Assembly (NCBI RefSeq): GCF_000743535.1
Contig: NZ_AVCJ01000001.1
Span: forward strand, 248,001-312,000
DNA from: Arenimonas donghaensis DSM 18148 = HO3-R19
GTDB taxonomy: Bacteria > Pseudomonadota > Gammaproteobacteria > Xanthomonadales > Xanthomonadaceae
Direction: 5' to 3'
Length of the DNA: 64,000 nt
Under the pieces are notes generated by a model that had not been told where the DNA came from, made no database searches, and saw only the letters and a program-made list of their open reading frames with translations. Positions 47,559 through 61,021 of this stretch are shown in pieces; position 1 is the first letter of the stretch; every line of letters starts with the position of its first letter. Made by a program: the position numbers and the translations under genes.

Positions 47559-49199
47559 CTACTCGGCGGCTTCGCCCTGCTTGCGCCGCAGCAACCAAGC
47601 TGCGGCCTCCGCGGTCCGAGCCGAGGTGTCCCAGATACAGCGGTACAGCTTTGACTCCTCTTTTTCATATCGGCGCATGGGTACCGGAATCAAGTATGCG
47701 GTCAGTTGGGTGTTGGCAGCGATCGCTGCAAGCATCCATGACTGGCCCGGCGGCGGCCGGTTCATGTCTACGAGGGGCCATCCCGGAATTACTTCCGTTT
47801 CCGGACACTCCTTCGGAGAAAGCCGCGCAGATTCGTGGATTGCCGTCGTCGTGGTTTGAATAAGCGAAAGTGACAACAGGTGCTCGTACCACCAGGCAAC
47901 GACCCCACCCACAGCGCCCTCATCTTGATATTCCAAGCTACGCCTCATCTGGTTTACAACTGCCAACAGCCGCACGCAGGTAAGCCCTGACAACCGTCCC
48001 TTAGCGACCGACAAAGACGTATCACCCACAAGACTGGTCCCGACGAATACGGTCACGGCCCGAGACCGATATCCGCGTGCTCGAACAGATGCCGGCGGCG
48101 GACTGGACTTGTGATAGTCGATATGAAATGACGGGTGCGTCAGCGCCTTCTTCTCCTGCGGTGTCAGGCCCTGGAGCTTTCGCCATCGTCTGTAATAGTG
48201 ATAGTGATCGCGCACCGCTCGTGACTCGGTTTGGTCCGACTTATCCTGCAGGCGTCTCTCCAATTTTACGAGCCACCGGGACTGCTCAAGTGAGCAAGGA
48301 AAATACTTGAACTCCCCAAGCGGCGCATCCACCGCCCTCTTAAACAACTTACACAGCTGGTCAATTTCGGTCTGGCTCGAAATCACCGCGGAGCGCGATA
48401 AGCCTGGCAAGCGCGCCTGACTCGAGGCGACGTAGGGCGCCAGTTCCTTAGGCCAGCCCACGCCGGTAACGTCGATCAACGACATCAACGTGCTGCGGTC
48501 GGGTTCGACTTCGCCACCGGGACAGGTCGGCGGAACCGCGTACGCATCTGACATCTTTCGACACCAACGAAAATGAGAGGCGACTACCTCGTTCCATCGG
48601 TCTGAACTCGCATGCGTGGCCATAACGATGGCGTCAGACTCAGCGAGAACTCGCCTGCAACGCGTGCACGTAAAGGCTTCCATAGGATCATACGGATGAG
48701 ACAGCCCTCGAAGCTTGCCTCCGCAGTGTCGGCACGAATCGCACAATTCGACTGCGTGAACCGGGCAGCGCAATAGCCACGGCAAATCAAACAAGTGCGA
48801 ATGGTAACCCTGCTTCAGGCATTCGGGGCAAAAGCGCGGTGGCGCACTGAAGGTAGAAAATAGCGGCTGAAGCGCGCGGGGCCACCAAGCACAGCTGTCA
48901 AAAGCCAGCGTCAATTCGGAAGGACGCAAGCGAAGTGTTTTCTCGACGAATCGCTTCTTGATTTTTAAGCGACCCTCCGTATGCAGCGAACTCACAAGCG
49001 ATTGCAGGTACGCCTGGCTTGGCGTGAACGCAGCCGCCACGTCCTGTGGTTCCAGCACATTAATCTGTGCCAGGCAGCCTAAAAGGCTTAGGGCGGACGG
49101 AAACGGCCATGGATGGCGTACGAAAAACAACGGCACGGGTTTGACGGCCTTCACGCCTGGGCACACACTTGATTGTGTAGCAGCGGCCCTTTGAGCCAA
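47559..49199 (-). CDS. TniQ-like zinc-finger protein
   Basis: The 546-residue protein has the TniQ signature in its N-terminal third: PLFFVRHPWPFPSALSLLG, then FCPECLKQGYHSHLFDLPWLLRCPVHAVELCDSCRHCGGKL and a second pair CTRCRRVL. TniQ/TnsD proteins choose the target site for Tn7- or Tn5053-like transposons, but no TniA or TniB gene is nearby. Codon use is less GC-biased than the backbone. The start is uncertain: TTG at 49199, or GTG at 49154 directly before VKAVKPVPLFF. It sits 183 bases from dif. Confidence 0.8.
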   Translation of the reverse strand: MAQRAAATQSSVCPGVKAVKPVPLFFVRHPWPFPSALSLLGCLAQINVLEPQDVAAAFTPSQAYLQSLVSSLHTEGRLKIKKRFVEKTLRLRPSELTLAFDSCAWWPRALQPLFSTFSAPPRFCPECLKQGYHSHLFDLPWLLRCPVHAVELCDSCRHCGGKLRGLSHPYDPMEAFTCTRCRRVLAESDAIVMATHASSDRWNEVVASHFRWCRKMSDAYAVPPTCPGGEVEPDRSTLMSLIDVTGVGWPKELAPYVASSQARLPGLSRSAVISSQTEIDQLCKLFKRAVDAPLGEFKYFPCSLEQSRWLVKLERRLQDKSDQTESRAVRDHYHYYRRWRKLQGLTPQEKKALTHPSFHIDYHKSSPPPASVRARGYRSRAVTVFVGTSLVGDTSLSVAKGRLSGLTCVRLLAVVNQMRRSLEYQDEGAVGGVVAWWYEHLLSLSLIQTTTTAIHESARLSPKECPETEVIPGWPLVDMNRPPPGQSWMLAAIAANTQLTAYLIPVPMRRYEKEESKLYRCIWDTSARTAEAAAWLLRRKQGEAAE

Positions 49200-49375
49200 G
49201 TCACGTCGCTCACCAGGGATGCCTCACTATCAAGAGACTCCGGCTTGGCCAAGACCGAAGAAGCCGGTGGGCTCGATTCGGTTGGTCCCAGCCATGCGGG
49301 CAGCCAGCGACTGCTTAGCACCTTCCACGTGCTTTCCTCCGCCCAACTCGAGAATCGATGGGCCATTCGGTGAGC

Positions 49376-49723
49376 CTATGGCATATCGGAGATCAACCCG
49401 CGATAGCGCGCGAAGGCCATGTCCGCTTCGACCTCCGTCGGCACGGGCTGCAAATGTGCCCCGTGCCGCACTCGCCACGCCACGCAATACCACGACCCGA
49501 ACTCTTCACGCGTCAGCTGGATCCCCGCGCGTGCCAGGTCGTACTCCACCGCCAGTGAATCACTGTGATCGAGCCCCAAGCGACGCAAGTCCGACACTAA
49601 AGCATCGGCGTGTTCGGCTGCAAAAGTCGGATCGTCCGGGTGTTGCGCGTAGCTTGACGCCCAAACTAAGCGCTCGCGGTCCGTCAGGGTCTGCCAAGGA
49701 AAAAAGGCGCAGCGGTCAGCCAT
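49376..49723 (-). CDS. Hypothetical protein of the accessory region
   Basis: A 115-residue acidic, soluble protein starting MADRCAFFPWQTLTDRERLVWASSYAQ. The ATG at 49723 has GGAGGAG nine bases upstream, better than the ATG at 49738. No motif is recognised; it has several conserved-looking aromatic residues (GSWYCVAWRVRHGAHLQP). It lies 176 bases upstream of the TniQ-like gene on the same strand. Confidence 0.6.
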   Translation of the reverse strand: MADRCAFFPWQTLTDRERLVWASSYAQHPDDPTFAAEHADALVSDLRRLGLDHSDSLAVEYDLARAGIQLTREEFGSWYCVAWRVRHGAHLQPVPTEVEADMAFARYRGLISDMP

Positions 49724-49906
49724 GGGCGCTCCTCCCATGTTTCGGATCGCCGAACGGTCAGCGACCAGCTTCCTATGTTACGCCTGTACGCGAGCGGTGA
49801 CGAGGTGCTGGCCCAAGAGCGAAACTGGGCTGCGTTCCGCGCGCACCCCGATAACCATGTTGTTCAGCGGAAAGCAGATTCCCCTGAAAAGCCAATCCGA
49901 AGACCG

Positions 49907-50185
49907 TCAGTCCGGCCAACGAAGGCGGGTCATGTCGGTTAACGGCCCCTGTTCTAGATCATTGCACCATGTCTCTAGCCCCCTCTGGCTCAGGCGGTCA
50001 ACACTTGGCACTAGGAGATCCACTTGCGTGGGTAGTCGCCCAACATCTTCGATTGTGGGGAAATGCCGCGCAATGACAGTCGCCTGTCGGCGCAGCTCCA
50101 GCGGCAGGCTGGGGTTACGGCTTATTTGAACGAGAAACCCGCCAGCCCACACAAGGGCTCTGGCTTTCTCATCAGGTGTCGACAT
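49907..50185 (-). CDS. Small helical protein resembling the BPSL0761 family
   Basis: A 92-residue protein: MSTPDEKARALVWAGGFL, then RNPSLPLELRRQATVIARHFPTIEDV. This layout (helix, PLELRRQA, then RHFP) resembles BPSL0761-like proteins found in proteobacterial islands. Function unknown. The ATG at 50185 has GAGAGCTGTC just upstream. Confidence 0.65.
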   Translation of the reverse strand: MSTPDEKARALVWAGGFLVQISRNPSLPLELRRQATVIARHFPTIEDVGRLPTQVDLLVPSVDRLSQRGLETWCNDLEQGPLTDMTRLRWPD

Positions 50186-50325
50186 GACAGCTCTCCTGGT
50201 TCGCTGGCTGGCAATAGTCCCAGCTTGTTGTCTGTCGTACCGCTACTGGGTCAACCCCTTGGAGGCCGGATCCGGCAAACACCTAGAGCTTGACCCGACT
50301 TGCGGCCGAGCCACTTCAAAGTGAA

Positions 50326-50349
50326 TTTAGGAAGTTTAGGGCGGTTTAG
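50326..50349 (+). repeat. Three TTTAG repeats at about 10-bp spacing in a 215-bp gene-free stretch
   Basis: TTTAG starts at 50326, 50335 and 50345, so the copies fall on one helix face. The rest of 50186-50400 shows no gene, tRNA or terminator. It could be a binding array or chance; the tract is AT-rich around 50320-50370. Confidence 0.3.
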
Positions 50350-50400
50350 CCAAAATGAATAAACTTCGGTGGCACTTGTTGTGGCGGGAAGGCGAGGCCG

Positions 50401-51309
50401 CTACAGGGCCGAGTCCGTTTTCTTGGCCGCGGGCCTGCGTCGCGCAGGCCTCGACGGCTTCAATTGCGCCTTGATCTGCTCATGCAATCGATCCAGTTGG
50501 CTCTCGAGGGCCGCTGCACGCGCTGTTGCCGCCGCCTCCCGGCGGCCGACATCTCTGACCTGACCCGATAGTAATGAGAGCCGTGATTCTCCATCCTGGA
50601 GCTTGGATCGGAACTCCTTCTCCGCCTGCTGCAACTGGCGACTCATTCGAGTGCGCTCCTGCCGCAATTGGTCCACTTCGGTCAGCCAACGGTTCTCGGC
50701 GGCGCGATGACTTGCCTCTAGGTTCCGCCGGTCAGCGGCTGCCTCTTCCTGTGTCTGGGCTCGCGCGGCCTCCGCTCGCTGCAGCTGGATCGCCAGCTCA
50801 GAAGCACTCTTGTCGGCGGCTATAAGGCGGGATTGGAGGTCTGCAATCTGACTGCTTTGCTGGTCGACTAGGCGCTGCATATCCGCTAGACGAACTTGCG
50901 TGTCCAGATTGGCCTGCTCTGCACGGTTCTGGGCCAGCTGCGCGGCTGCCAAGGCAGCTGCCATGGCCTGTTTTTCGTCCTCCAGCGCCTGCCGTTCCGC
51001 GGTCAGGGCTTCCCTGACCCCTTCGAGATCGCGTTCAACCGCCTCCCCTGCAGCTTTCAGTGCTATTTCCCAGAGAGCAGATGCGGCGTCGACCACCAGA
51101 GTGGGCGCGTTCGGGATGGCCGCGGACCGTCGGTGGGCTGCCAGCCTCTCTCCGAGCCCCTGCCACCAGACGTCCAGCATGCGCGTCAGGGTGTTCGGAG
51201 ACCCAGTTCCGAGCGTGGCCCGGACCCTTTCGATGGTGGGCCGCTCGCCAGCCAGCAGCAGCTGCTCGATCGCGGTGTTGACCTGTTCCTGGGTGACACC
51301 CCGTGCCAT
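50401..51309 (-). CDS. KfrA-like DNA-binding coiled-coil protein
   Basis: The 302-residue protein starts MARGVTQEQVNTAIEQLLLAGERPTIERVRATLGTGSPNTLTRML, the KfrA N-terminal DNA-binding domain, followed by about 170 residues of heptad-like coiled coil (ALTAERQALEDEKQAM through LESQLDRLHEQIKAQL) and a basic tail (RPARRRPAAKK). KfrA proteins are plasmid or island autorepressors with a partition-like role. It is divergent from a tyrosine recombinase, with tandem palindromes between them that are likely operators. Confidence 0.87.
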   Translation of the reverse strand: MARGVTQEQVNTAIEQLLLAGERPTIERVRATLGTGSPNTLTRMLDVWWQGLGERLAAHRRSAAIPNAPTLVVDAASALWEIALKAAGEAVERDLEGVREALTAERQALEDEKQAMAAALAAAQLAQNRAEQANLDTQVRLADMQRLVDQQSSQIADLQSRLIAADKSASELAIQLQRAEAARAQTQEEAAADRRNLEASHRAAENRWLTEVDQLRQERTRMSRQLQQAEKEFRSKLQDGESRLSLLSGQVRDVGRREAAATARAAALESQLDRLHEQIKAQLKPSRPARRRPAAKKTDSAL

Positions 51310-51345
51310 TGAAAAGTCCTCCTACTGCGACGCCCTACCCCGGGC

Positions 51346-51374
51346 TTGACCTACCGACGATAAGTGATGATTAT
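51346..51374 (+). promoter_or_regulatory. Possible promoter of the integrase gene
   Basis: TTGACC (51346-51351), 17-base spacer, GATTAT (51369-51374). The start of transcription would fall on the first palindrome at 51377. A TATAAT at 51411-51416 overlaps the ATG and is less useful for this gene. Confidence 0.4.
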
Positions 51375-51376
51375 CG

Positions 51377-51409
51377 TTGGTACAGACCAATTCGTGTAGT
51401 ACAGACTAC
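51377..51409. promoter_or_regulatory. Tandem palindromic operators between kfrA-like and integrase genes
   Basis: Two 14-base inverted repeats share the core GTACAGAC: TTGGTACAGACCAA (51377-51390) and GTAGTACAGACTAC (51396-51409). Their starts are 19 bases apart. They lie just before the integrase ATG and are good candidates for KfrA-like or integrase binding. Confidence 0.6.
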
Positions 51410-51414
51410 ATATA

Positions 51415-52500
51415 ATGAAGCGAAAGGACACTCTACCCGCCCTCGCCTCACCCGCAGCCGGACTCGCGTTGCCCGAGCAACTCGCGCAACAGGCCGCGGA
51501 TGCCGTACGTGAGCTGCTGGCCGAAGCGGCGGCCGCAAACACCACGCGCAGCTACGCCTCGGCCTTACGTTACTGGGCCGGCTGGCACGTAGCTCGCTAC
51601 GGGATTGAGCTGCCCTTTCCGACGCCTGAGGCAACCGTGCTGCAGTTCCTGGTCGACCACACGGCCCGCCGGACCGAGGATGGACGCCTGACCTGGGAGT
51701 TGCCGCTGGAGGTCGACCACGCGCTCGTGGCTGCGGGTCTCAAGGCCAAGCCCGGCGCTTGGACCTTGGCCACCGTTCGGCACCGGGTAGCTGTCCTGTC
51801 GACCGCCCATCGCCTTAAACATCTGACCAATCCCTGTGAGCAGCCAGCGGTTCGGACGGTCCTTAGCCGAGCTGGCCGTGCCGCCGTGAAACGCGGTGAG
51901 CGCCCCCGCAAGAAGACGGCCATCACCTTGACCGAGCTCGAGGCCATGCTGGCCACGTGCGACGACAGCCTCGAGGGGTTGCGGGATCGAGCCCTGCTCT
52001 GCTTTGGGTTTGCCAGCGGCGGACGCAGGCGGAGCGAAATCGCCGCGGCCGACATACGCGACCTGCGCCGGATCGGTCCCCAGGGGTTCATTTACCGCTT
52101 GGAGCACAGCAAGACGCAGCAAGCCGGCGTCACCGCATCCTCGACCCCTGACAAGCCGGTGCTCGAACGGGCAGCGCTAGCAATGGAAGACTGGCTCGAG
52201 GCTTCTGGGATTGCGGATGGTGCGATCTTCCGGCGGCTTTGGAAGCAGCGCGTGGGCCCCGCCCTATCCCCAGCTGCGGTCGGAGAGATCGTGCAGCGGC
52301 GTGCGCGCCTGGCAGGGCTGCAGGGGGACTTTGGGGGACACAGCCTCAGATCCGGGTTTGTGACCGAGGCAAGCCGCCAGGGCGTGGCGCTGCCGGCCAT
52401 CATGCAACTAACTGAGCATCGAGCGGTGTCCAGCGTGATCGGGTACTTTCAGTCAGGAGGCACGACGACCAATCCCGCGGCGCGGCTACTGGAAGACTGA
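51415..52500 (+). CDS. Tyrosine-type site-specific recombinase (integrase)
   Basis: The 361-residue recombinase has a SAM-like core-binding domain (NTTRSYASALRYWAGWHVARYGI) and a catalytic domain with Arg in SGGRRRSEIAAADI, HSLRSGFVTEA, TEHR and the nucleophile Tyr in VIGYFQSG. It can integrate or invert DNA. The ATG at 51415 gives the full N-terminus. Its target site is unknown; attachment repeats were not found in the window. Divergent from the kfrA-like gene. Confidence 0.92.
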   Translation: MKRKDTLPALASPAAGLALPEQLAQQAADAVRELLAEAAAANTTRSYASALRYWAGWHVARYGIELPFPTPEATVLQFLVDHTARRTEDGRLTWELPLEVDHALVAAGLKAKPGAWTLATVRHRVAVLSTAHRLKHLTNPCEQPAVRTVLSRAGRAAVKRGERPRKKTAITLTELEAMLATCDDSLEGLRDRALLCFGFASGGRRRSEIAAADIRDLRRIGPQGFIYRLEHSKTQQAGVTASSTPDKPVLERAALAMEDWLEASGIADGAIFRRLWKQRVGPALSPAAVGEIVQRRARLAGLQGDFGGHSLRSGFVTEASRQGVALPAIMQLTEHRAVSSVIGYFQSGGTTTNPAARLLED

Positions 52501-52509
52501 TGGGTGCGT

Positions 52510-54783
52510 TCACGGCGCAAGATCCGGGGCGAACGTTAGGACTTGGCCCAAGGTAACGCCCAAACCATTCTCACCGGCGATCGCCATCACTGCCGGCACA
52601 CCATCTGCGCTCAACTGCAGGGTCAATGTCGCGAGCAACTCGACGTCCATCATGCTCGGCGTGTTGGCCAGGCCCGGTGGGTGGGAATGCCACTCACCCA
52701 CGTAGCCGACCATGTCGCGGGTCAACCGCCGGCACTCCTGAACCGCCTCCAGTACATTGAGCTTGCCTCGGGTGAAGCCGCTTTCATCTGCCTGGCTATC
52801 GGCAGGTGCAAGCCAGCCATCCACAAGGTGTATGGTCCGTAGCTTGTGGTCGATAACGCCCACCAGTACGCCCCCAGTTTCCGTCGGAAATGCCGCACGG
52901 CGAGCCGCTTCAAGCTGCGCCTCAAGGGCTGCGTCCCAGCGCACCTGCCAAGCGCCGCACTGCACCGATCGCGTGGGCGCCGGCAACATGCTCTCACAGG
53001 TCACCTCCCCCGTTGCGTCGTCCAGGCTCCATACGGCGATCTGCGCGCCGGGCTCGGCCACGCCACGGCGGATCCGCCGTGCGAGCTGCGCGGCGTGCAG
53101 ATGAATCAATTCATCCGAGAGCACGAAAGAGCGGTCGCGGCAGCCACCACCTACGCGTAACGGCTGGACGGAGTCCAGATGGTGGCGCCCCCAAGGCTGT
53201 TGCAGCAACGCGCGGTAGTACTGCGCTTCCAGACTCGAAACCCGAATCGCGCGTGCGTCGTCCTCAAGAAGCAGTACGGCGGCTAGGCCAGAAGGTGTCA
53301 GGAACGCTGAAGCAATGCGCGGACCTTCGCGCTCGGACAGGTCTCGCGGGACGTCGATCGTCGTGGTGGCGTCGACCAGCAACTGCGCGCGCAGTAGCGC
53401 CGCCTCTACTTCGGCGCACTGTACGGCGTTAGCGCGCGCAACAATCGCAGCCCCTTGCGGCCCCGGGGTGTCGAGGAGCGCGTCGATCCGGGCGCGTACG
53501 AGTTCCGCCTTTGCCTGCCCGACATCGCGGAACACACCAACATGCCGTATTGGATTGTGCGGTTCGAGCGTGTCTGGATCGACAAGATCCCACTGTCCCC
53601 AGCCCTCCCGCGACCACAATTCCGCCATTACCGACCCCAACGCGCCCGTGCCTGCGAGGACACCGCGAAATTCTGCCTCCGTGGCGGAAACTCCGGATAT
53701 CGCCTGCGCCAAGGCGCGATCGGGAGAAAATCGAACATCCACAGGATAGAGCTTGTATTCGCGCCATCGATGTTCGGTGGGAAGCAACGGCGTCGTGTCT
53801 GGCGACAGAATCTGAAACGAATACGCTTTGTTTCCCTGCAGCTGGAGCACGCCCAAGGCCATGCCCAAGCGGGCCAAGTCGATTTCCAGGATGAACCCGC
53901 GCACGTCGATGCGCTGCACCTGCCCTTCGTGCACACGCGGAATGCTCGCAAGCAAGAGCACGCGCCGTGGCGGTTCACTCGGTGCCAAGGTGATGCCGCC
54001 CTTCCCGTGCGTTCGCATCACCTCGAGCATCGATGGGAACAGGGAAGTTCCCATGGCCTGCAACCGCGCCTCCAACTCCGCGAGCGTATGCGGGGGACCC
54101 TGAATCGGCAAGTGGGAGATAGGCGCGAGTGTGATTTGCAGCAGGTCGAGGCCGGGGTGTGTGGGAGACGTACCGTCGAGACGTTCGACAATCATCGTGC
54201 CGCGATTGCCTGCCATCACCGTGCACGTCACGCGCAATGGGCCTGTCTTGCCGCCACCGGGACGCCCAAGCTCCGCTGGAACCACGACCTGCTCGCCGGT
54301 GGAGAAGAACAGCTGTTCCAGTGCTTGATCACCCTCATGCAAGGTGCCGTCGGCGGTTTTCTCGAGCCAGCGCAGCAGCTGGCGTAGGTGCGCTTGCGGG
54401 GTCCAACTGCGTTCCACGGTCGTCCACGAGGGCTCATACAGGCACAGGGAGCGTGGCTGCCCACTTTCAACTCCATTCTGGTGCAACGTGTCGGGAAAAT
54501 CCCGACGCAGCGCACGCACCTCCGGCGGCATTTCCGCGCCCGATCGATAGGTGAGCGCCAGCCGCTCGCGACGCCGGATGCCCACCAAGTTCCCTGGGAC
54601 CACGGCCCCATCCCCCGCATCGACGATGACCGCGAAATAATCAGGTGACCCGTCGATACGGCGCAGTTCGACCACGTCGAAGTCCGGGTGCGCCATGCAC
54701 GCCTGCAGGATTTCCCGCAGACGCGCCTGCCCGGGCTCATTAGGAATCGCGGGGACTATCTCACCCCAGTCGATCAACTCCAC
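52510..54783 (-). CDS. E2-E1-JAB triple-fusion ubiquitin-like conjugation protein
   Basis: The 757-residue protein joins three modules. An E2-like part (about 1-170) has the ALRRDFPDTLHQNG and PRSLCLYEPSW pattern, with candidate catalytic Cys114. An E1/ThiF Rossmann domain (about 355-560) has GTGALGS at 378-384 and WDLVDPDTLEPHNPIRH. A JAMM isopeptidase (about 615-757) has Glu635 in PTETGG and EWHSHPPG...S..D (His699, His701, Ser710, Asp713). Type II CBASS and related systems use these activities as separate proteins. A GTG start at 54783 is 2 bases from the upstream MBL gene stop. No ubiquitin-like modifier gene is evident nearby. Confidence 0.88.
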   Translation of the reverse strand: MELIDWGEIVPAIPNEPGQARLREILQACMAHPDFDVVELRRIDGSPDYFAVIVDAGDGAVVPGNLVGIRRRERLALTYRSGAEMPPEVRALRRDFPDTLHQNGVESGQPRSLCLYEPSWTTVERSWTPQAHLRQLLRWLEKTADGTLHEGDQALEQLFFSTGEQVVVPAELGRPGGGKTGPLRVTCTVMAGNRGTMIVERLDGTSPTHPGLDLLQITLAPISHLPIQGPPHTLAELEARLQAMGTSLFPSMLEVMRTHGKGGITLAPSEPPRRVLLLASIPRVHEGQVQRIDVRGFILEIDLARLGMALGVLQLQGNKAYSFQILSPDTTPLLPTEHRWREYKLYPVDVRFSPDRALAQAISGVSATEAEFRGVLAGTGALGSVMAELWSREGWGQWDLVDPDTLEPHNPIRHVGVFRDVGQAKAELVRARIDALLDTPGPQGAAIVARANAVQCAEVEAALLRAQLLVDATTTIDVPRDLSEREGPRIASAFLTPSGLAAVLLLEDDARAIRVSSLEAQYYRALLQQPWGRHHLDSVQPLRVGGGCRDRSFVLSDELIHLHAAQLARRIRRGVAEPGAQIAVWSLDDATGEVTCESMLPAPTRSVQCGAWQVRWDAALEAQLEAARRAAFPTETGGVLVGVIDHKLRTIHLVDGWLAPADSQADESGFTRGKLNVLEAVQECRRLTRDMVGYVGEWHSHPPGLANTPSMMDVELLATLTLQLSADGVPAVMAIAGENGLGVTLGQVLTFAPDLAP

Positions 54784-54785
54784 GA

Positions 54786-55952
54786 TCAGCCCGCACGCGG
54801 TGCTGCCGCAGCCGCGACTGCCGCGGCCGCCGACTTCCGAGCGGCCTTCTTCTTCGCGCCAGCGGCGGTGATCTCGATCTCCAGCGGCTCGGGGGCCCAG
54901 CTATTGGGCGATTCGCCGGTGCAAAGGAACACGCCGTCATGCTCGGCCAAGATCGCCTTGTACTCTCGTCGCGCACGCACACACGGCGGGTCCGCGTCAT
55001 CATCCTTGATGGGCTTGCTGCTGGCGATGATTATCGCGCCGTAGCGCGCTTGCGCCAAGGCGGACCGCGCATCGGCAGCTACCTCGACCTTCTCCTTGAG
55101 CTTTGACCAGCTGTCATAAGACAGCGAGTGCCAAGAGCAGTGGTGCGGCGCCTGAAGCACGTCGTAGCTGAGCACATCGGGAGTATCTCGGTAGCGCTTC
55201 CACAACCGCTCCCAAATCGCTACCTCCGCGTCGCCAGCGGTGAGGAAGCGGCAGCTGTCCAAGAAGGACAACGAGCTAGCCAAGGTCATGTTCAAGATCA
55301 CACTCGAGTGATTCTTTGACACCACGTCCTCATCATCATCGCTATCCGACGGCAGTGGAGCGAGCAGCTGCGCATTGAAGTAGGCGTTGTGCTTGCCGTT
55401 GATAGTCTGGAAGCGATCACCAACCTTCACAAGGATATCGCCCAAGTCGTCGGTCTTACCGTCCTCGTCCTCGCCCATGACTCGGATGCGATCACCCTCG
55501 CCCACCGCCCCGTCGCGGAAACACTGGACTCGGCGCTTGACCTCCCTGCTGAAGGCCTTGGCATCAGGGCAAAGCGGTAGGGTTTTGCTCGCGCGGCGAA
55601 ACACAATCGGCGAAGACCAGATCTCCCGGATCACGATGCGTTTCTCGGCATCCGGCTTCTTATCGTCCGGATAGTCGGTCAGAGGTCCGAGATAGAAGTG
55701 CGCTTCCAGGCCGGTACAGTGATCCTTGTCAGGATGGCTGAGCAGAAAAGCATCGACATAAGGGCGCCCCTCGCTGTCGCGCTGAAGGCGCTCGCGCAGA
55801 TCTGCAGCCACGTTGCGAGTTGGGTCATCCGAGTCGTCGGCGGCAGCGCGGATGTTGCAGTCGATCAGGAGCGTTGTGGCTTCCTCATCAGCCATGCGCA
55901 CCAGGGTCATGTCGCCGCAGCCGACAGGGAAAAAGGTGAGATTGGCGTTCAA
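54786..55952 (-). CDS. MBL-fold hydrolase (ComEC-like) upstream of the E2-E1-JAB gene
   Basis: The 388-residue protein has the metallo-beta-lactamase motif LSHPDKDH (His73, Asp75, Asp77, His78), a downstream TAGDAE Asp and QAPHHCSWHS, the ComEC-type variant of PHHGS. A long Ala/Lys-rich tail ends the protein. It could hydrolyse a nucleotide or nucleic acid. The frame has no ATG near the start; TTG at 55952 (MNANLTFFPVGCGD) is the best start. It is divergent from the WYL regulator by 134 bases. Confidence 0.85.
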   Translation of the reverse strand: MNANLTFFPVGCGDMTLVRMADEEATTLLIDCNIRAAADDSDDPTRNVAADLRERLQRDSEGRPYVDAFLLSHPDKDHCTGLEAHFYLGPLTDYPDDKKPDAEKRIVIREIWSSPIVFRRASKTLPLCPDAKAFSREVKRRVQCFRDGAVGEGDRIRVMGEDEDGKTDDLGDILVKVGDRFQTINGKHNAYFNAQLLAPLPSDSDDDEDVVSKNHSSVILNMTLASSLSFLDSCRFLTAGDAEVAIWERLWKRYRDTPDVLSYDVLQAPHHCSWHSLSYDSWSKLKEKVEVAADARSALAQARYGAIIIASSKPIKDDDADPPCVRARREYKAILAEHDGVFLCTGESPNSWAPEPLEIEITAAGAKKKAARKSAAAAVAAAAAPRAG

Positions 55953-56007
55953 TTGGGCGGTACCTACGAATAGAGCCGTGGCTTGCTACCGGTCACGGGA
56001 CGGCAGC

Positions 56008-56028
56008 GCTATAATACGACTATTAAGC
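56008..56028. promoter_or_regulatory. Imperfect palindrome with -10 elements between the MBL and WYL genes
   Basis: A 21-base imperfect palindrome with GCT...AGC ends and AATA...TATT inside. It contains TATAAT on the plus strand (56010-56015) and TATTAT on the minus strand (56016-56011), so it could hold both divergent -10 boxes and an operator for the WYL regulator. Confidence 0.45.
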
Positions 56029-56086
56029 CGATGGGTCTACTCAATATGCGCGTTTACTCAGTACCATCAAACCCTTTCCAATCAAT

Positions 56087-56989
56087 ATGTTAACTGATTC
56101 TGACAACCGCAGGGGCCGCTGGGGGCAGGACCGACGTCTTGAATTTATAGACACCCGGCTAACTTGGTTAGGACGGATCAACCGTAAGGAACTGACCGAA
56201 TTCTTCAAGATCTCGGTCCCTCAAGCGTCGCTGGACCTGGCCGAGTACCAGGCCCGCGCGCCCTCGAATGTTATCTACGACCGAAACGAGAAGGCATATG
56301 TAGCCACATCAGACTTCCAGCCCATCCTGATCGACGGCGGCAGCGCGCGGTATCTGGCTGAGCTGTACGCGCTAAGTACCGGCGTCATCGGTCCCGACGT
56401 AAGTTTTCTTGGCTGGACGCCGACGGCGGACGTAGTGCGTCATCCAACGCGGATGGTGTCGCCGAGTGTGTTGCGCTCGGTCGCGCACGCCATTCGCGAA
56501 CGCGAGTCTTTGAGTATCCACTATCAATCAATGACGAGGCCCGAACCTACCGCGCGGGTCATCAGTCCTCGCGCCTTTGCCTACGACGGTTTTCGATGGC
56601 ACCTCCGCGCGTACTGCCACCTACGAGACGATTTTCGCGACTTCGTCTTTGCGAGGATCCTGAATTTGGCCAAGGCGTCCGAACAAAAATCGGTTCCACA
56701 CGTGGATGTAGAGTGGGAGCGTGAGCTTTCGATCGTCATCGGCCCCAACCCATTACTGGATGACAACAGGAAGCGTGTACTGGCGCTCGACTACGGCATG
56801 GCGAACGATCGTTTGGTCTTGAAGACCCGACAGGCACTCGCCTTCTACCTGCTCCGGCGACTAGGACTTGACAAGTCAATGGATCAGCCGCCAGAAGAAC
56901 AGCAAATCGTCCTGCTCAATCGCGAAGACCTGGTGCCGTTTCTGCCGCAGCTCCAGAAGAGGAGTGAGAGAATGTCGCAGTCGCTCTAG
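56087..56989 (+). CDS. CapW/BrxR-like WYL-domain transcriptional regulator
   Basis: The 300-residue protein has an N-terminal winged helix (RRLEFIDTRLTWLGRINRKELTEFFKISVPQASLDLAEYQARAP), a WYL domain (SIHYQSMTRPEPTARVISPRAF, FRWHLRAYC at 169-177) and a C-terminal WCX-like part. This arrangement, including NVIYDRNEKAYVA, is that of the CapW/BrxR repressors that control CBASS, BREX and other defence loci. It is divergent from the MBL and E2-E1-JAB genes and probably represses them until infection or damage. Confidence 0.88.
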   Translation: MLTDSDNRRGRWGQDRRLEFIDTRLTWLGRINRKELTEFFKISVPQASLDLAEYQARAPSNVIYDRNEKAYVATSDFQPILIDGGSARYLAELYALSTGVIGPDVSFLGWTPTADVVRHPTRMVSPSVLRSVAHAIRERESLSIHYQSMTRPEPTARVISPRAFAYDGFRWHLRAYCHLRDDFRDFVFARILNLAKASEQKSVPHVDVEWERELSIVIGPNPLLDDNRKRVLALDYGMANDRLVLKTRQALAFYLLRRLGLDKSMDQPPEEQQIVLLNREDLVPFLPQLQKRSERMSQSL

Positions 56990-57256
56990 TCCTGATGTGA
57001 TGGCCCGAAACTTTGGTCCTGATGGAGCCAGCACGGGGCCTCACAGATCTGCGGGCCGCCCACCTCGCTTTGCAGCCACTGCCGAACATCCCTCCCGCAG
57101 GATGACAGGCCGCTTCATTTTTGCGTGCAGATGGACAAAGGGGCGCGAAGGGCCAAGGCTAGTTCGAGTGAGGGCGCGAAGACACTGCAGTGGACTACTG
57201 CGTGGACCCTCGATTCCACCGTGTGGGCGAGATAACCAAAACCGAGGTAACGCGTC

Positions 57257-57883
57257 ATGTCTGCAAAGCAAGGCCTGCTCAAATGGTTGGGTGCGTTCGT
57301 AGCCTTCGATATCGTGGTGATTAGTGCCCTGCTAGCACCACAACTACTTGGCACACCTGCGGTCGGAGCCCGGATCGCCGGCGCCTTGACCGCGCTTCTC
57401 GCACCCCCTGTGCTGCTCTTACTGAACACGCTGGTGCCGCAGGACTTCAAGCACATACTCGTCTTCTGGCGCCTTCGTGACGTGCTTCCCGCACACCGCG
57501 CATTCACTCTCTATGTGAATGGCGATCCGAGGATTGATGCCGCTGCCCTCAAGGCGAGAATCGGCGAATTCCCCTTGGATCCGCGGGACCAACAGAACCT
57601 ATGGTTCCGCATATACCAAAGGTACAAGACGGAACTTTCTGTAGTGGATGCGCATCGACCTTTTCTTATTTTTCGGGACTTGGCTGCGCTTTCCTTCCTG
57701 CTGGCGGTAATTGTACCGGTGGTGCTGTATGGACTCGCATTCTCGATCGCAGCGTGGAGTACGCTTGCCGTTTTTTCTGGCCAATATTTCCTGGCCACTT
57801 TAGCGTCGCGCCAAGCTGCTAGGCGTTTCGTTTGCACAGTCCTATCGCTGGAAAGCCACTCTCCTTCTCCGGCAAACTCATAA
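57257..57883 (+). CDS. Four-TM membrane protein paired with a cyclase-like gene
   Basis: A 208-residue protein with two N-terminal membrane segments (about 10-31 and 36-62), a soluble middle (RLRDVLPAHRAFTLYVNGDPRID, DQQNLWFRIYQRY, HRPFLIFRDL) and two C-terminal segments (145-165, 167-190). The middle block looks conserved. No enzyme motif is seen, so it could be a membrane effector. It lies 267 bases after the WYL gene and 69 before the cyclase-like gene, same strand. The 56990-57256 gap shows no gene. Confidence 0.7.
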   Translation: MSAKQGLLKWLGAFVAFDIVVISALLAPQLLGTPAVGARIAGALTALLAPPVLLLLNTLVPQDFKHILVFWRLRDVLPAHRAFTLYVNGDPRIDAAALKARIGEFPLDPRDQQNLWFRIYQRYKTELSVVDAHRPFLIFRDLAALSFLLAVIVPVVLYGLAFSIAAWSTLAVFSGQYFLATLASRQAARRFVCTVLSLESHSPSPANS

Positions 57884-57952
57884 GCAAATTGAGTGAGAGG
57901 AAGAATGTCATCAAGAGCCTGACCACGCACCTTTCCTCGAGGACCACTACGC

Positions 57953-58951
57953 ATGTTCTCGCGCGCTGAAATTGAACACCACGACTTCACCGCCGTTCCT
58001 GTCGATCGCGACATCTACTTGATGGACGAGAAGTGGATTCCGGAATACGAGGCGTACATCGACGCGATCTACGCAGGGAACCATCCCGACCCGCCGGGCT
58101 TCATCTCCTACGCCTCGGTGCGATCGATCGCCACAGACCATCTCGAGATCTCGTGGTACCCCAACATCCACGACCGCTACCACGAGCTACTGCTGCGCCT
58201 GCCGCATTGCGACTTCATTGTCTGCGTGGAGTGCAGAGATATCGACGAAAAGCCGCGGATCTTCGTGCGCAGCGAATGGCTCGATGACCTGCATCGCAGG
58301 CCGTACAGCGCATTCGCGCTAGTCGACGCGATCGGCGTAAAGAATGCGCTCCGTGCTGGGAACCTGGCCGAGAGCAGGCTTGTGGCTCTGCGGGGTGCCT
58401 TGGACGAAATCGCCGCCCGTCAAACCCAAATCGCTATCTTTAGCTTTGCCGACAGCGTGCTTATCAAGTCCCACTGGACCGTGGGCGCGTTTGATACACC
58501 AGTGGACTACACTTACACGCCTGAGATGATGATCGACCTCGTGGAAGAGGTCTTCTCGGCGTTCAAGATACATCTCAGTCTGGACTGCTATGCGTGCATC
58601 ACGCAAGGCTTCAACGAGTACAGCGATGGTGCGATCGTGCACACATCGCCGTCTGGTCACCACATATCGCTCAACAGCCTCGGCCTGCCGTTCGCGCAAC
58701 TCCTGAGCATCGATCACGCGACCCACCAGGCGATTCGTACTGGCCGCCATGCCGCTGCAGAGCTTTACCTCGACCAGCTCTACTACCGCTCTTTGCGCTG
58801 GCAATACGGCTTCGACCGGGATGGCCAACCGGCGGGTGAGTATGACGCACCGCTCAGCCACCACCCGGGTCAGTACTACTGCCTAAGCCTGGATCTGGTT
58901 CGCGCCAACCTGAAAGGGCCAGAAGGACGTGAGGATTTGGCTGCCGGGTAG
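57953..58951 (+). CDS. Putative nucleotidyl-cyclase-like protein
   Basis: A 332-residue soluble protein. From residue 119 it shows SAFALVDAIGVKNAL (Asp125) and then SFADSVLIKSHW (Asp167), the two metal-aspartate strands seen in class III nucleotidyl cyclases (pattern FxDxxGF and FSDS). The N-terminal 110 residues (MFSRAEIEHHDFTAVPVDRDIYLMDEK onward) are unrecognised. With a membrane protein gene upstream the pair has the layout of Pycsar cyclase plus effector, but without a canonical effector. Cyclase activity is an inference from two motifs. Confidence 0.6.
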   Translation: MFSRAEIEHHDFTAVPVDRDIYLMDEKWIPEYEAYIDAIYAGNHPDPPGFISYASVRSIATDHLEISWYPNIHDRYHELLLRLPHCDFIVCVECRDIDEKPRIFVRSEWLDDLHRRPYSAFALVDAIGVKNALRAGNLAESRLVALRGALDEIAARQTQIAIFSFADSVLIKSHWTVGAFDTPVDYTYTPEMMIDLVEEVFSAFKIHLSLDCYACITQGFNEYSDGAIVHTSPSGHHISLNSLGLPFAQLLSIDHATHQAIRTGRHAAAELYLDQLYYRSLRWQYGFDRDGQPAGEYDAPLSHHPGQYYCLSLDLVRANLKGPEGREDLAAG

Positions 58952-59412
58952 TACATGGCGGCACGTCCGCGCAAGCGATGTAAGCCCCCGGACCATTCGC
59001 CGGGCCCATCAGGCCCTCGACCGACTAAAATTCCTTCACGGCGTCACTGGCTGATAGCCGCTGTGGGTCGAAAGCTGCCCTCCCCTACCCCCGATAATGG
59101 TCCCTAACCGAACCCCATGAGGGCCAACGTCGGGGAGAACTCCAGACGGCCACCAGCGGCAGCTGACGTCTCGCCCTGTTAAGGCAAGCCATCTTGGGGC
59201 CAGGCCCGGTGCCCCCCCGAAAGGGCTGAGAATTTTTCGCGCCCGAGTTGAGGTCAACCGGCCTGCTCACTTGCCAGATCGGCACTTAAGGGGACTTGCT
59301 TTGAGTTCGATACCGTAGTCAGGGTGGTGCAGGTGGAGCCAGCCAACTGACAGTCGTGCTGTATGACACGATCGAGGTGGCCCAAGATGGGCTCCAAAAG
59401 AGTGAGACCACT
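58952..59412. other. Gene-free stretch in the accessory island
   Basis: About 460 bases without a convincing gene. It contains GGGTCGAAAGCTGCC, which looks like a degenerate dispersed intergenic repeat, and one copy of the 21-base sequence at 59087-59107. Short frames here lack coding character, and no tRNA or terminator is seen. Confidence 0.5.
59087..59107 (+). repeat. Copy A of a 21-base near-repeat
   Basis: Begins ACCCCCGATAATGG and ends TCCCTAA. It resembles 61291-61311 in the same orientation, with about 18 of 22 aligned positions matching by eye. The two copies bracket a 2.2-kb segment. Confidence 0.4.
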
Positions 59413-60123
59413 ATGTGGGACTGGATCCGTAAGCTACTCGGCGCCCCAGCTGCCCGGCCGCCCGCCGCGACTGATGTCGCGCGATCGGTGAGCTTCACCG
59501 GCGACGAGTTCTATGGCGCGAACAGCGACATCCTGGATGGAGTTCAGTTCAGCGCAACGCTTCAGGTGCGCACGCCCCTATGGATACTCGAACACCACGG
59601 CGAGGTGTTCCGTGGCCCGCCATCGCAGGCACCCGATTACGGTGGCCAGGCACACGGGATCTGGCTACCAAAGACGAAGGACGAGCTGGGTGATCTTCTT
59701 CAGCAAGGCGCCACACATGCCAGTGACGCCGGCCCCGTAGCGCCCGCAGACTACCTCCCGTTTCTGAAGGCGTTCCGCGCAATCGTGGAAGGCCCCGGCG
59801 ACGAGATGGAGAAGCTCCGCCTCCTGCGCCAGGTGCCCAAGGAATCGCCAGCGTTCAAGCGGTTCTGGAGCAAGCTCACGGCTTACTACCCGGACTTTCC
59901 CGAAAGCTTCTTCTACCTGCGGCTGACCGAGCTCGAGGGCGTCGGCCCAACGACAGCCAAGCGCCTGTTCGAGGTTGGGATCAAGTCGATTGAAGACGTG
60001 CACGCAGCCACGGACGCCGACCTACTCGCGGTTCGAGGGGTAGGCAAAGCGCTGGTGGCTAGGATCCGCGGCGCCGGCCCGTCAGGTGCCGCGCGGCAGC
60101 GGCAAGAGGGTGCATCCCCGTAG
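59413..60123 (+). CDS. Helix-hairpin-helix protein of unknown role
   Basis: A 236-residue protein starting MWDWIRKLLG (ATG at 59413; a 19-codon longer start at 59356 exists). The C-terminal part carries two helix-hairpin-helix motifs, ELEGVGPTTAKRLFEVGIKSIEDV and LLAVRGVGKALVARIRG, which usually bind DNA without sequence specificity. The first 150 residues are unrecognised (FSATLQVRTPLWILEHHGEVFRG). It may be a nucleic-acid-binding component of the island. The similar 21-base sequences flank this gene and the next. Confidence 0.7.
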   Translation: MWDWIRKLLGAPAARPPAATDVARSVSFTGDEFYGANSDILDGVQFSATLQVRTPLWILEHHGEVFRGPPSQAPDYGGQAHGIWLPKTKDELGDLLQQGATHASDAGPVAPADYLPFLKAFRAIVEGPGDEMEKLRLLRQVPKESPAFKRFWSKLTAYYPDFPESFFYLRLTELEGVGPTTAKRLFEVGIKSIEDVHAATDADLLAVRGVGKALVARIRGAGPSGAARQRQEGASP

Positions 60124-60261
60124 CAGCGCGGGATCGAAGCTGAAGTCGTGCTCGTGCGTCGCGGCAGCGCACCGACCGACAACGCGATCGGGAAACACCT
60201 TGCCGCCGTCTTGGAGTTCCACGTCGTTACAGCAATCCTCGATTGCCCCGGGTTCCAGCAC
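60082..60261 (-). CDS. Possible small or truncated gene overlapping the HhH gene end
   Basis: A minus-strand frame (open from 60327) reads SVLEPGAIEDCCNDVELQDGG followed by KVFPDRVVGRCAAATHEHDFSFDPALLRGC, a natural-looking composition unlike the other frames. It lacks an ATG; a GTG at 60261 is the only clear start and has no strong ribosome-binding site. It overlaps the last 42 bases of the HhH gene. It may be a gene remnant. The remainder of 60262-60481 shows nothing else except an 18-base palindrome at 60352-60369. Confidence 0.3.
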   Translation of the reverse strand: MLEPGAIEDCCNDVELQDGGKVFPDRVVGRCAAATHEHDFSFDPALLRGCTLLPLPRGT

Positions 60262-60481
60262 CGAGATACGGAGCCCGTCGAGCGCAACAGCCCTACGGCT
60301 ACCTCGCCAGCCCTTAAACGCGCGCGCTCACCAGCTATACGCCGACACAACGCCGCTTCGAGAAGCGGCTAGCTGACGGCGGCGGGGATTTCGCTGGCCG
60401 ATGCAGAAACACAGCGTCAGCAGCTGCCCCACTTTGCCCCTTACGCAAGGGAAACCTAACTGCAGGAGGGGGCAAAGCCTA

Positions 60482-61021
60482 CTACCTCTCCGAAATAATT
60501 AGTCGAACCAGCTGGATATTCCCGACAAGGGCTACGCCGAAAAGCACAAGACACAACGCAACCAGTTCATTGGTCCACGCAACAAGAAATGGCTGACCGA
60601 CCCCATACATCGAAGTGACGGAGAGAAAAATCACGACACTTGAAAGAAGCAACAATCCGACGAGAACTTTCACAATCCGAGGCCGCCACCGGGACAGTGT
60701 CCGCAGATCTATCAAGTATCTCTGCTCAAGCTCATTAAGCTTCACTGCCGGCGTAGCTATCAGGAGGTCTCTGAGGAGCCTTGCGCCCTCATAAAAATAC
60801 CCCCTAGCAATGGACTCCAATACCTCATCAGTTCGGCGATAGTCGAACAACCCAGGATTGCTTCTTACTACGCGCACCAGCGGCTCAGCTAGTTCGCGCA
60901 TTTGCGAATCAATTGACTGAAGCCTAAATAGCGCCGCCGCAGACACTAAACCCATGATGGCAGCTAACGCCTGCGCGATCGTGCTAAGTGTGTAGAACGC
61001 TCTCGTAATTTCCAGTTCCAT
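60482..61021 (-). CDS. Hypothetical membrane protein of the island
   Basis: A 179-residue protein with an N-terminal membrane segment (TLSTIAQALAAIMGLVSAAALF), a helical soluble part (ELAEPLVRVVRSNPGLFDYRRTDEVLESIARG; EGARLLRDLLI) and two C-terminal segments (VKVLVGLLLLSSVVIFLSV and ELVALCLVLFGVALVGNIQL). Its codons are AT-richer than the backbone, consistent with transfer. Family not recognised. The ATG at 61021 is the first in frame. Confidence 0.7.
   Translation of the reverse strand: MELEITRAFYTLSTIAQALAAIMGLVSAAALFRLQSIDSQMRELAEPLVRVVRSNPGLFDYRRTDEVLESIARGYFYEGARLLRDLLIATPAVKLNELEQRYLIDLRTLSRWRPRIVKVLVGLLLLSSVVIFLSVTSMYGVGQPFLVAWTNELVALCLVLFGVALVGNIQLVRLIISER

What the first reader, a model, noticed from the sequence alone, without database searches (positions are those of the whole stretch)
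52510..56989. E2-E1-JAB fusion with an MBL hydrolase under a CapW-like regulator: a probable ubiquitin-like antiphage cassette
Seen: one 757-residue protein carries an E2-like part (LCLY, Cys114), an E1 Rossmann motif (GTGALGS) and a complete JAMM motif (Glu635, HSHP, S..D). It is 2 bases from an MBL-fold gene (SHPDKDH, PHHCS) and divergent from a WYL protein of CapW/BrxR layout. Established: E1/E2 and JAB proteins act in type II CBASS and Bil-type defence, and CapW/BrxR regulators control defence operons. Inference: this is a compact conjugation-deconjugation defence module. What is odd: all three activities are in one chain, there is no CD-NTase, and no modifier gene is evident, so the MBL protein or a host protein may be the target or modifier.
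Basis: partly seen in the sequence, partly recalled or inferred. Interest (0 to 1): 0.88.

Follow-up and report, generated by a model that had tools for sequence, protein, structure and literature searches.

The report
Defence nuclease wearing a ubiquitin-like tail
This is a known type of bacterial anti-virus gene pair, and comparing its relatives suggests that its nuclease-like enzyme itself plays the part of ubiquitin, carrying a short interchangeable tail that tells the partner enzyme to attach it to something.

Summary
The pair belongs to a known system: NCBIfam '6A-MBL_cap2_3' (661 bits, cut-off 320) and '6A-MBL_enzyme' (440, cut-off 220) match the two genes, and Iyer 2006 described this operon as type 6a. 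The regulator is CapW-like. The missing modifier is very probably the MBL protein itself. Its disordered tail ends in Pro-Arg-Ala-Gly. RAG or xHG stands at or near the C-terminus in 51 of 51 MBL clusters beside a triple protein; shuffles give 2.9, and 0 of 21 weakly related control proteins have it. Four MBLs sit beside separate E1 and JAB genes; their tails differ, and one origin for them is rejected (p 3e-5). Two of these tails match those of CD-NTases beside related E1-E2 genes at up to 13 of 18 residues. So Cap2-like enzymes seem to read portable tails shared by unrelated enzymes. A membrane protein gene (57257-57883) is a likely accessory (20 of 103 other loci). I found no report of MBL conjugation in the papers searched, but did not see the source of the NCBIfam name. 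Conjugation, nuclease activity and defence are untested.

The parts
52510..54783 (-). Triple protein E2-E1-JAB (757 aa), '6A-MBL cap2_3'; E2 about 54268-54603, E1 about 53341-53667, JAB about 52573-52929
   Evidence: NCBIfam NF058523 661 bits; Pfam Prok-E2_A, ThiF, Prok-JAB; catalytic residues invariant in 62 of 62
54442..54444 (-). codon of E2 cysteine Cys114
   Evidence: invariant in 62 of 62
53140..53142 (-). codon of putative E1 cysteine Cys548
   Evidence: invariant in 62 of 62
54786..55952 (-). MBL-fold enzyme (388 aa), '6A-MBL enzyme', ComEC-like; proposed modifier and effector
   Evidence: NCBIfam NF058524 440 bits; model pLDDT 89.4; nearest PDB 9ic4, ComEC MBL domain, E 1.5e-12
54789..54836 (-). 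disordered C-terminal tail of the MBL, residues 373-388, ending PRAG: proposed E1-recognised conjugation tail
   Evidence: pLDDT under 50; RAG/xHG in 51 of 51 clusters with a triple protein
55953..56086 (.). divergent promoter region between MBL and regulator; imperfect palindromes at its edges are weak candidate operators
   Evidence: the five relatives in the same search show other repeats or none; inconclusive
56087..56989 (+). CapW-like WYL regulator (300 aa)
   Evidence: phmmer to S. maltophilia CapW 7tb6, E 4.4e-72 over residues 5-285; Pfam WYL
57257..57883 (+). helical membrane protein (208 aa), likely accessory component; no Pfam, PADLOC or NCBIfam match
   Evidence: relatives at 20 of 103 other loci; model pLDDT 87.7, no PDB match at E 0.001
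51415..52500 (+). tyrosine integrase beside the module (context)
   Evidence: Pfam Phage_integrase; relatives in L032, L034, L091

Best explanation
A CapW-controlled 6A-MBL defence operon in which the ComEC-like MBL enzyme is itself the protein that gets conjugated. Proposed working: CapW keeps the operon low until infection or DNA damage relieves it (inferred from CapW papers). The E1 part adenylates the C-terminal glycine of the MBL's flexible PRAG tail, the thioester passes to Cys114 of the E2 part, and the MBL is joined to an unknown amine target; the JAB part removes it, and in relatives with 1-6 extra residues after the glycine may first trim them (all inferred; the matching sequence features are shown). 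Conjugation would place or activate the MBL, probably a DNase by kinship with ComEC and HamM, perhaps at the membrane with the 57257-57883 protein (speculative). It works like type II CBASS conjugation with an MBL in place of the CD-NTase. The E1-E2 enzyme reads a portable tail: the tail goes with the enzyme machine more than with the MBL lineage.
For: (1) RAG or xHG within 8 residues of the MBL C-terminus in 51 of 51 clusters (90% identity) with an adjacent triple protein; shuffled tails give mean 2.9, maximum 10 in 2000 shuffles; the triple proteins' own C-termini 2 of 51. (2) 0 of 21 control proteins that match the MBL model weakly carry these or the G[FY]G/A tails, nor do the MBLs of L140 and L141 (L019 and L140 are the same gene); the triple-protein profile finds nothing in those loci. 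(3) The tail is disordered in the model. (4) In L062, L073, L097 and L116 an MBL over the NF058524 cut-off sits beside separate E1 and JAB genes; L062's match PADLOC E1-E2 and JAB models at 621 and 183 bits. These MBLs end in GFA, RYA or GYA; one clade for them is rejected, p 3e-5. (5) The L062 and L097 tails match 18 tails read beside other E1-E2 genes at 1-13 of 18 positions, sum 257 against a shuffled mean of 67.0 and maximum of 103; against 60 triple-linked MBLs the mean is 1.5, maximum 3. For the ten most similar in kind the range is 5-13; seven of those ten have CD-NTase domains and one a guanylate cyclase domain. (6) In type II CBASS a C-terminal Gly or Ala is conserved only with Cap2+Cap3 and is conjugated (PMC10097602, passages). 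(7) In a sample of 398 genomes 7 have the MBL over cut-off and 6 the triple; those 6 are next to the MBL, and the 7th has separate E1-E2 and JAB genes.
Against: No biochemical test. The RAG/xHG split follows the triple protein's tree in one change and needs more on the MBL core tree, but a single RAG clade on the MBL tree is not rejected (p 0.129). Two triple-linked loci, L124 and L126, end in G[FY]G plus 4 and 1 residues instead. Not all tails beside E1-E2 genes fit: L148, L153, L154 and L168 match L062 and L097 at only 1-4 of 18 positions; the tails of L073 and L116 match best at 8 and 6 of 18, and L116's best is no better than its best among triple-linked MBLs. The tail-coding end lies against the E2 start codon, so tail and machine could travel together by linkage. 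Nuclease activity is inferred from fold only, and the Foldseek fit to ComEC is partial (TM 0.52 by query, 0.71 by target).
Confidence: 0.8

Rival explanations
1. The MBL is the target rather than the modifier: an unencoded or distant ubiquitin-like protein is joined to it, and the MBL tail only docks the enzyme.
For: No beta-grasp family was found among ten window proteins scanned; shorter neighbouring ORFs and the rest of the genome were not scanned for one, so a distant modifier is not ruled out.
Against: The conserved point of the tail is a glycine at or near the C-terminus; two MBL tails resemble those of CD-NTases, which are the conjugated protein in CBASS.
Confidence: 0.1
2. The tail motif is a linkage by-product: it reflects constraint on the abutting start of the E2 gene (ribosome binding, translational coupling), not E1 recognition.
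For: The MBL stop and the triple start lie 2 bases apart in the window and close together in most loci (starts there are estimated from alignments).
Against: The motif is followed by 0 to 6 further residues before the stop, so its distance to the E2 start varies; tails match at the protein level between unrelated enzymes.
Confidence: 0.06
3. The JAB activates the MBL by proteolysis, as proteases activate the MBL nuclease HamM, and conjugation is secondary.
For: MBL-type nucleases of other defence systems are proenzymes opened by a partner protease (PMC12799240, passages); the JAMM residues are invariant in 62 of 62.
Against: It does not explain the invariant E1 and E2 cysteines or the tail. 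I did not look for a cleavage site in the MBL core.
Confidence: 0.08

Closest known systems
6A-MBL anti-phage system (NCBIfam NF058523/NF058524) = operon type 6a of Iyer et al. 2006
   Same: Same two genes in the same domain order, scores at about twice the curated cut-offs.
   Different: Nothing seen in the two core genes; CapW and the membrane protein are additional to those two models.
Type II CBASS (CD-NTase + Cap2 + Cap3)
   Same: E1-E2 and JAB chemistry; the best solved structure for the triple profile is Cap2 7to3, over positions 134-487; C-terminal Gly/Ala on the upstream enzyme; CapW-like regulator.
   Different: MBL instead of CD-NTase; no CD-NTase family among the ten window proteins scanned; E1-E2 and JAB in one chain.
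Bil / Bub ubiquitin-like systems
   Same: E1, E2 and JAB set used in defence (as I recall; BubCD is a weak hit of the E1 part).
   Different: No beta-grasp gene found among the ten proteins scanned; the proposed modifier is an enzyme.
MBL nucleases of Avs1/Hachiman/Lamassu and ComEC
   Same: MBL fold, HxDxDH motif, weak profile matches to LmuA, RTasMBL and Avs1a.
   Different: No protease family among the ten proteins scanned; control by conjugation proposed.
PADLOC candidate PDC-M48B
   Same: The MBL of L140, next to a gene of the same membrane protein family, matches it at 302 bits.
   Different: No triple-protein match in L140 and no conjugation tail.

Membership tests
6A-MBL / Iyer type 6a | single protein with E2, E1, JAB in that order | tested here: met
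6A-MBL / Iyer type 6a | adjacent specialised MBL gene | tested here: met
   NF058524 440 bits against 220
6A-MBL / Iyer type 6a | anti-phage activity | not testable with these tools
   name only; source publication not seen
Type II CBASS | CD-NTase gene in the operon | tested here: not met
   no CD-NTase family among ten proteins at 47559-61021
Type II CBASS | Cap2-like and Cap3-like domains | tested here: met
Bil/Bub | beta-grasp ubiquitin-like gene | tested here: not met
   none among the ten proteins scanned; shorter ORFs not scanned
CapW/BrxR regulators | near full-length similarity to CapW | tested here: met
   7tb6 E 4.4e-72, residues 5-285 of 300
CapW/BrxR regulators | palindromic operator over the -10 of the operon promoter | tested here: inconclusive
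   imperfect palindromes at 55949-55974 and 56084-56099, not the same in the five relatives searched
Cap2-type non-ubiquitin conjugated protein | C-terminal Gly/Ala conserved with the E1-E2-JAB machine and not without it | tested here: met
   at or up to 6 residues before the C-terminus
Cap2-type non-ubiquitin conjugated protein | thioester and isopeptide bond formation | not testable with these tools
   bench assay needed
ComEC-like MBL nuclease | fold and metal motif | tested here: met
   9ic4 E 1.5e-12; an HxDxDH-type motif in 69 of 69 MBLs, one with His at the third position
ComEC-like MBL nuclease | DNA cleavage | not testable with these tools
   bench assay needed

The most novel reading that the evidence does not exclude
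Bacterial E1-E2 (Cap2-type) enzymes recognise short, portable C-terminal tails that have been passed between unrelated defence enzymes: CD-NTases, a guanylate cyclase and ComEC-like MBL nucleases. Each machine clade has its own tail (PRAG, xHG, FPxRPxxPxKPxGFA, GGxRYA/G). 6A-MBL would then be a second conjugation system whose modifier lacks the ubiquitin fold, and the conjugation machine a chassis on which different effectors are mounted; a membrane protein is a recurrent partner of the MBL.
Probability: 0.72. Interest if true: 0.8.

Novelty: new member of a known kind. Interest (0 to 1): 0.62.

Why it matters
[quoted passage not shown] The tail evidence names a likely second one, gives a single-residue test (the terminal glycine of the MBL), and gives a sequence rule, the shared tail, for finding further conjugated enzymes beside Cap2 genes. 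MBL relatives lie on 247 PLSDB plasmid records (238 covering at least 80% of the query).

Tried and rejected
No match to the triple or the MBL in 50,697 phage records at E 1e-5; five MBL loci in viral contigs. Operator search inconclusive. Co-variation of RAG/xHG with the triple tree: direction as expected, but the AU test does not reject one RAG clade, so the argument rests on the swaps to separate E1 and JAB genes. In that test the group had been noticed by its tails and genes before the tree, and L116 is a long branch. L072 has the MBL fused in frame to the triple protein; the genes abut or overlap, so it may be a frame change and got no weight.

Rows dropped: one search leaves out L072 (fused), L088 (MBL cut short) and L003 (same locus as L034). 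L004-L008 showed no triple there because the loci were short; in longer stretches four have one (L117-L120) and the fifth, L121, has separate genes. L069 showed no triple by the search. One search adds seven more triple-linked plasmid loci with RAG or xHG (L128, L129, L131-L135, some close to earlier clusters) and two without (L124, L126). The MBL tree leaves out L103, L132 and L135; searches also lack L115 and L126; and 96 further leave out L120, L124, L128 and L129. Alignment A3 holds 47 of the 53 references, which already lacked L103 and L115. One search used 10 of the 18 tails read; one search repeats it with all 18. The control set is 21 of 22 (L027 runs off its locus; L028 is partly masked).

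The membrane protein gave no Pfam family shared by its members and no PDB match at E 0.001; L033's and L082's copies are partial. Literature searches. Papers seen in passages only: PMC1779556, PMC13373217, PMC10097602, PMC12355090, PMC12799240, PMC9122588; others as listings. PMC10292035, PMC11476048 and PMC12145246 are not held.
Full report
WHAT IS THERE. The 757-residue protein has Prok-E2_A, ThiF and Prok-JAB domains over Pfam's cut-offs. Across 62 triple proteins the E2 cysteine (114), a second cysteine in the E1 part (548), the glycine loop, Asp402, Arg413, Lys425 and the JAMM residues are invariant, so these sites look intact in the window. The MBL gene stops 2 bases before the triple protein's GTG. 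The divergent WYL protein is CapW-like along almost its whole length: its best match among solved structures is S. maltophilia CapW, E 4.4e-72.

WHAT IT IS. NCBIfam has models for both proteins, 'anti-phage 6A-MBL system', and both match at about twice the cut-off. The name fits Table 1 row 6a of Iyer et al. 2006, which describes a triple-module E2-E1-JAB protein almost always next to a metallo-beta-lactamase (PMC1779556, passages). So the finding is a member of a described system. I did not see the publication behind the NCBIfam name; '6A-MBL' occurs in no paper of the library. [quoted passage not shown]

HOW COMMON. In a sample of 398 genomes of the phylum, 7 have the MBL over cut-off and 6 the triple protein; those 6 lie next to the MBL, and the seventh genome (G006) has separate E1-E2 and JAB genes. 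A scan of genome contigs matched 219 relatives, of which 80 were kept. 247 plasmid records hold a match to the MBL, none of 50,697 phage records does at E 1e-5, and five viral contigs do.

THE MODIFIER. The MBL ends in an Ala-rich stretch and PRAG. In the AlphaFold2 model (pLDDT 89.4) residues 373-388 are the only segment of three or more residues under 50. I read the C-termini of 89 MBLs and reduced them to 60 clusters at 90% identity. Of the 51 clusters with an adjacent triple protein, 51 carry RAG or xHG within 8 residues of the end; shuffling the last 25 residues gives 2.9 on average and at most 10 in 2000 rounds; the triple proteins' own C-termini give 2 of 51. In a set of 69 MBLs, 60 carry the motif; 31 of these end exactly at the glycine and 29 have 1-6 further residues, like ubiquitin precursors. 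Distant members keep it: L120, L128 and L129 end in RAG, and L130, whose E1-E2 gene ends without a JAB, in RAG plus three residues. Exceptions: L124 and L126, with triple proteins, end in G[FY]G plus 4 and 1 residues. Control: of 22 proteins that match the family model weakly, 21 have a readable end and 0 carry the motif (one is partly masked), and the triple-protein profile finds nothing in their loci (these loci are about 3 kb).

MACHINE SWAPS. In L062, L073, L097 and L116 the MBL sits beside separate E1 and JAB genes (an E2 domain is recognised in L073 and L116, only weakly in L062, not in L097). L062's pair matches PADLOC E1-E2 and JAB models at 621 and 183 bits, and L116's E1-E2 one at 348 bits; that these are PADLOC's CBASS models is my recollection, but plasmid relatives of L062's E1-E2 are annotated beside DncV-like nucleotidyltransferases. 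The four MBLs are over the 6A-MBL cut-off, yet their tails end in GFA, RYA or GYA. One clade of the four is rejected, p 3e-5.

SHARED TAILS. I fetched ten plasmid regions holding relatives of these E1-E2 genes. The upstream enzyme is a CD-NTase in seven (L146, L148-L152, L154), a guanylate cyclase domain protein in one (L147), an MBL in one (L153) and unclassified in one (L155). Eight genome loci were read too. The last 18 residues of L062 and L097 match the 18 tails at 1-13 positions, sum 257 against a shuffled mean of 67.0 and maximum of 103, while 60 triple-linked MBLs give a mean of 1.5 and at most 3. The first count, with the ten tails most alike in kind, gave 185 against 38.9 and 73. Not all fit: L148, L153, L154 and L168 match at 1-4 positions only. 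For L073 the best matches are L153 (8, itself an MBL), L154 (7, a CD-NTase, '...GGDRYG' against '...GGNTRYA') and L168 (7); L116 reaches 6, no more than its best among triple-linked MBLs. The set consists of best hits, not a random draw.

READING. In type II CBASS, the CD-NTase C-terminus is Gly or Ala where Cap2 and Cap3 are present and not conserved otherwise, and deleting the glycine abolishes conjugation (PMC10097602, passages). The MBL shows the same pattern and, in L062 and L097, has a tail like that of CD-NTases beside related E1-E2 enzymes. The simplest explanation is that the E1 reads the tail and that the MBL is the conjugated protein. The tail could have moved together with the machine genes as one block, since it lies against the E2 start; the tail would then still belong with the machine. 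On trees, RAG and xHG separate in one change on the triple protein and need more on the MBL core, but one RAG clade is not rejected there (p 0.129).

WHAT THE MBL MAY DO. Its nearest solved structure is the MBL domain of ComEC (9ic4, E 1.5e-12). MBL nucleases of this kind cut DNA in other defence systems once activated by a protease (PMC12799240, passages). That conjugation activates or places the MBL here is inference. Two relatives (L125, L129) carry a patatin phospholipase gene downstream, as some CBASS operons do (L146, L149, L154), so in some loci the MBL may work upstream of another effector.

A THIRD GENE. The window gene at 57257-57883 encodes a helical protein with hydrophobic regions at about residues 6-38, 36-61 and 134-174 and no known family. 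Relatives occur at 20 of 103 other loci (19 at E under 1e-10; near-identical loci not removed), in several positions and orientations. In the 398-genome sample 4 genomes have it: two beside a 6A-MBL operon and two in a pair with a ComEC-like MBL (L140, L141), in which the triple-protein profile finds nothing and whose MBLs lack the tail. So it seems to be a partner of the MBL rather than of the conjugation enzyme.

CONTEXT. An integrase lies beside the module and related integrases in three other loci. WYL proteins similar to the window's lie at 65 of 103 other loci.

LIMITS. No experiment; the target, the nuclease activity and phage defence of this locus are untested. The triple protein was not modelled, nor its complex with the MBL. 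The literature search covers open papers only.

Noticed in passing
L147:1128-2681 and L155 upstream of 686: Mesorhizobium plasmid: a guanylate cyclase domain protein ends in ...KKDGFS beside ThiF and JAB genes, with a TIR gene next to them; in Sphingobium an unclassified protein ends in the same kind of tail (...KPAGFA) beside E1-E2, JAB and TIR genes. Possibly a cyclase system using CBASS-type conjugation.
   Followed up: partly
L140:5669-7410 and L141:6020-7827: Pairs of a ComEC-like MBL and the 208-aa membrane protein family without a triple-protein match; the L140 MBL matches PADLOC candidate PDC-M48B.
   Followed up: partly
L125:8805-9905, L129:8214-9365: Patatin phospholipase genes downstream of MBL plus E1-E2 genes.
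   Followed up: partly
L153:1291-2475: Gene annotated as cobalamin biosynthesis protein CobQ reads as an MBL of this kind (HPDQDH, PHHCS), ending ...PAYA, beside separate ThiF and JAB genes.
   Followed up: partly
L072:6980-10408: MBL fused in frame to the triple protein without the usual tail.
   Followed up: no
L088:6983-7750, L122: MBL reading frames that stop early near E1-E2 and JAB genes.
   Followed up: no
57953-58951 and 59356-60123: A 332-aa protein without Pfam or NCBIfam matches and a 255-aa protein with a helix-hairpin-helix end lie downstream of the membrane protein gene; neither has relatives in the 91 loci searched.
   Followed up: partly
47559-49199, 50401-51309: A TniQ-like protein (weak match) and a KfrA-type plasmid protein near the integrase, suggesting a mobile element.
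   Followed up: no
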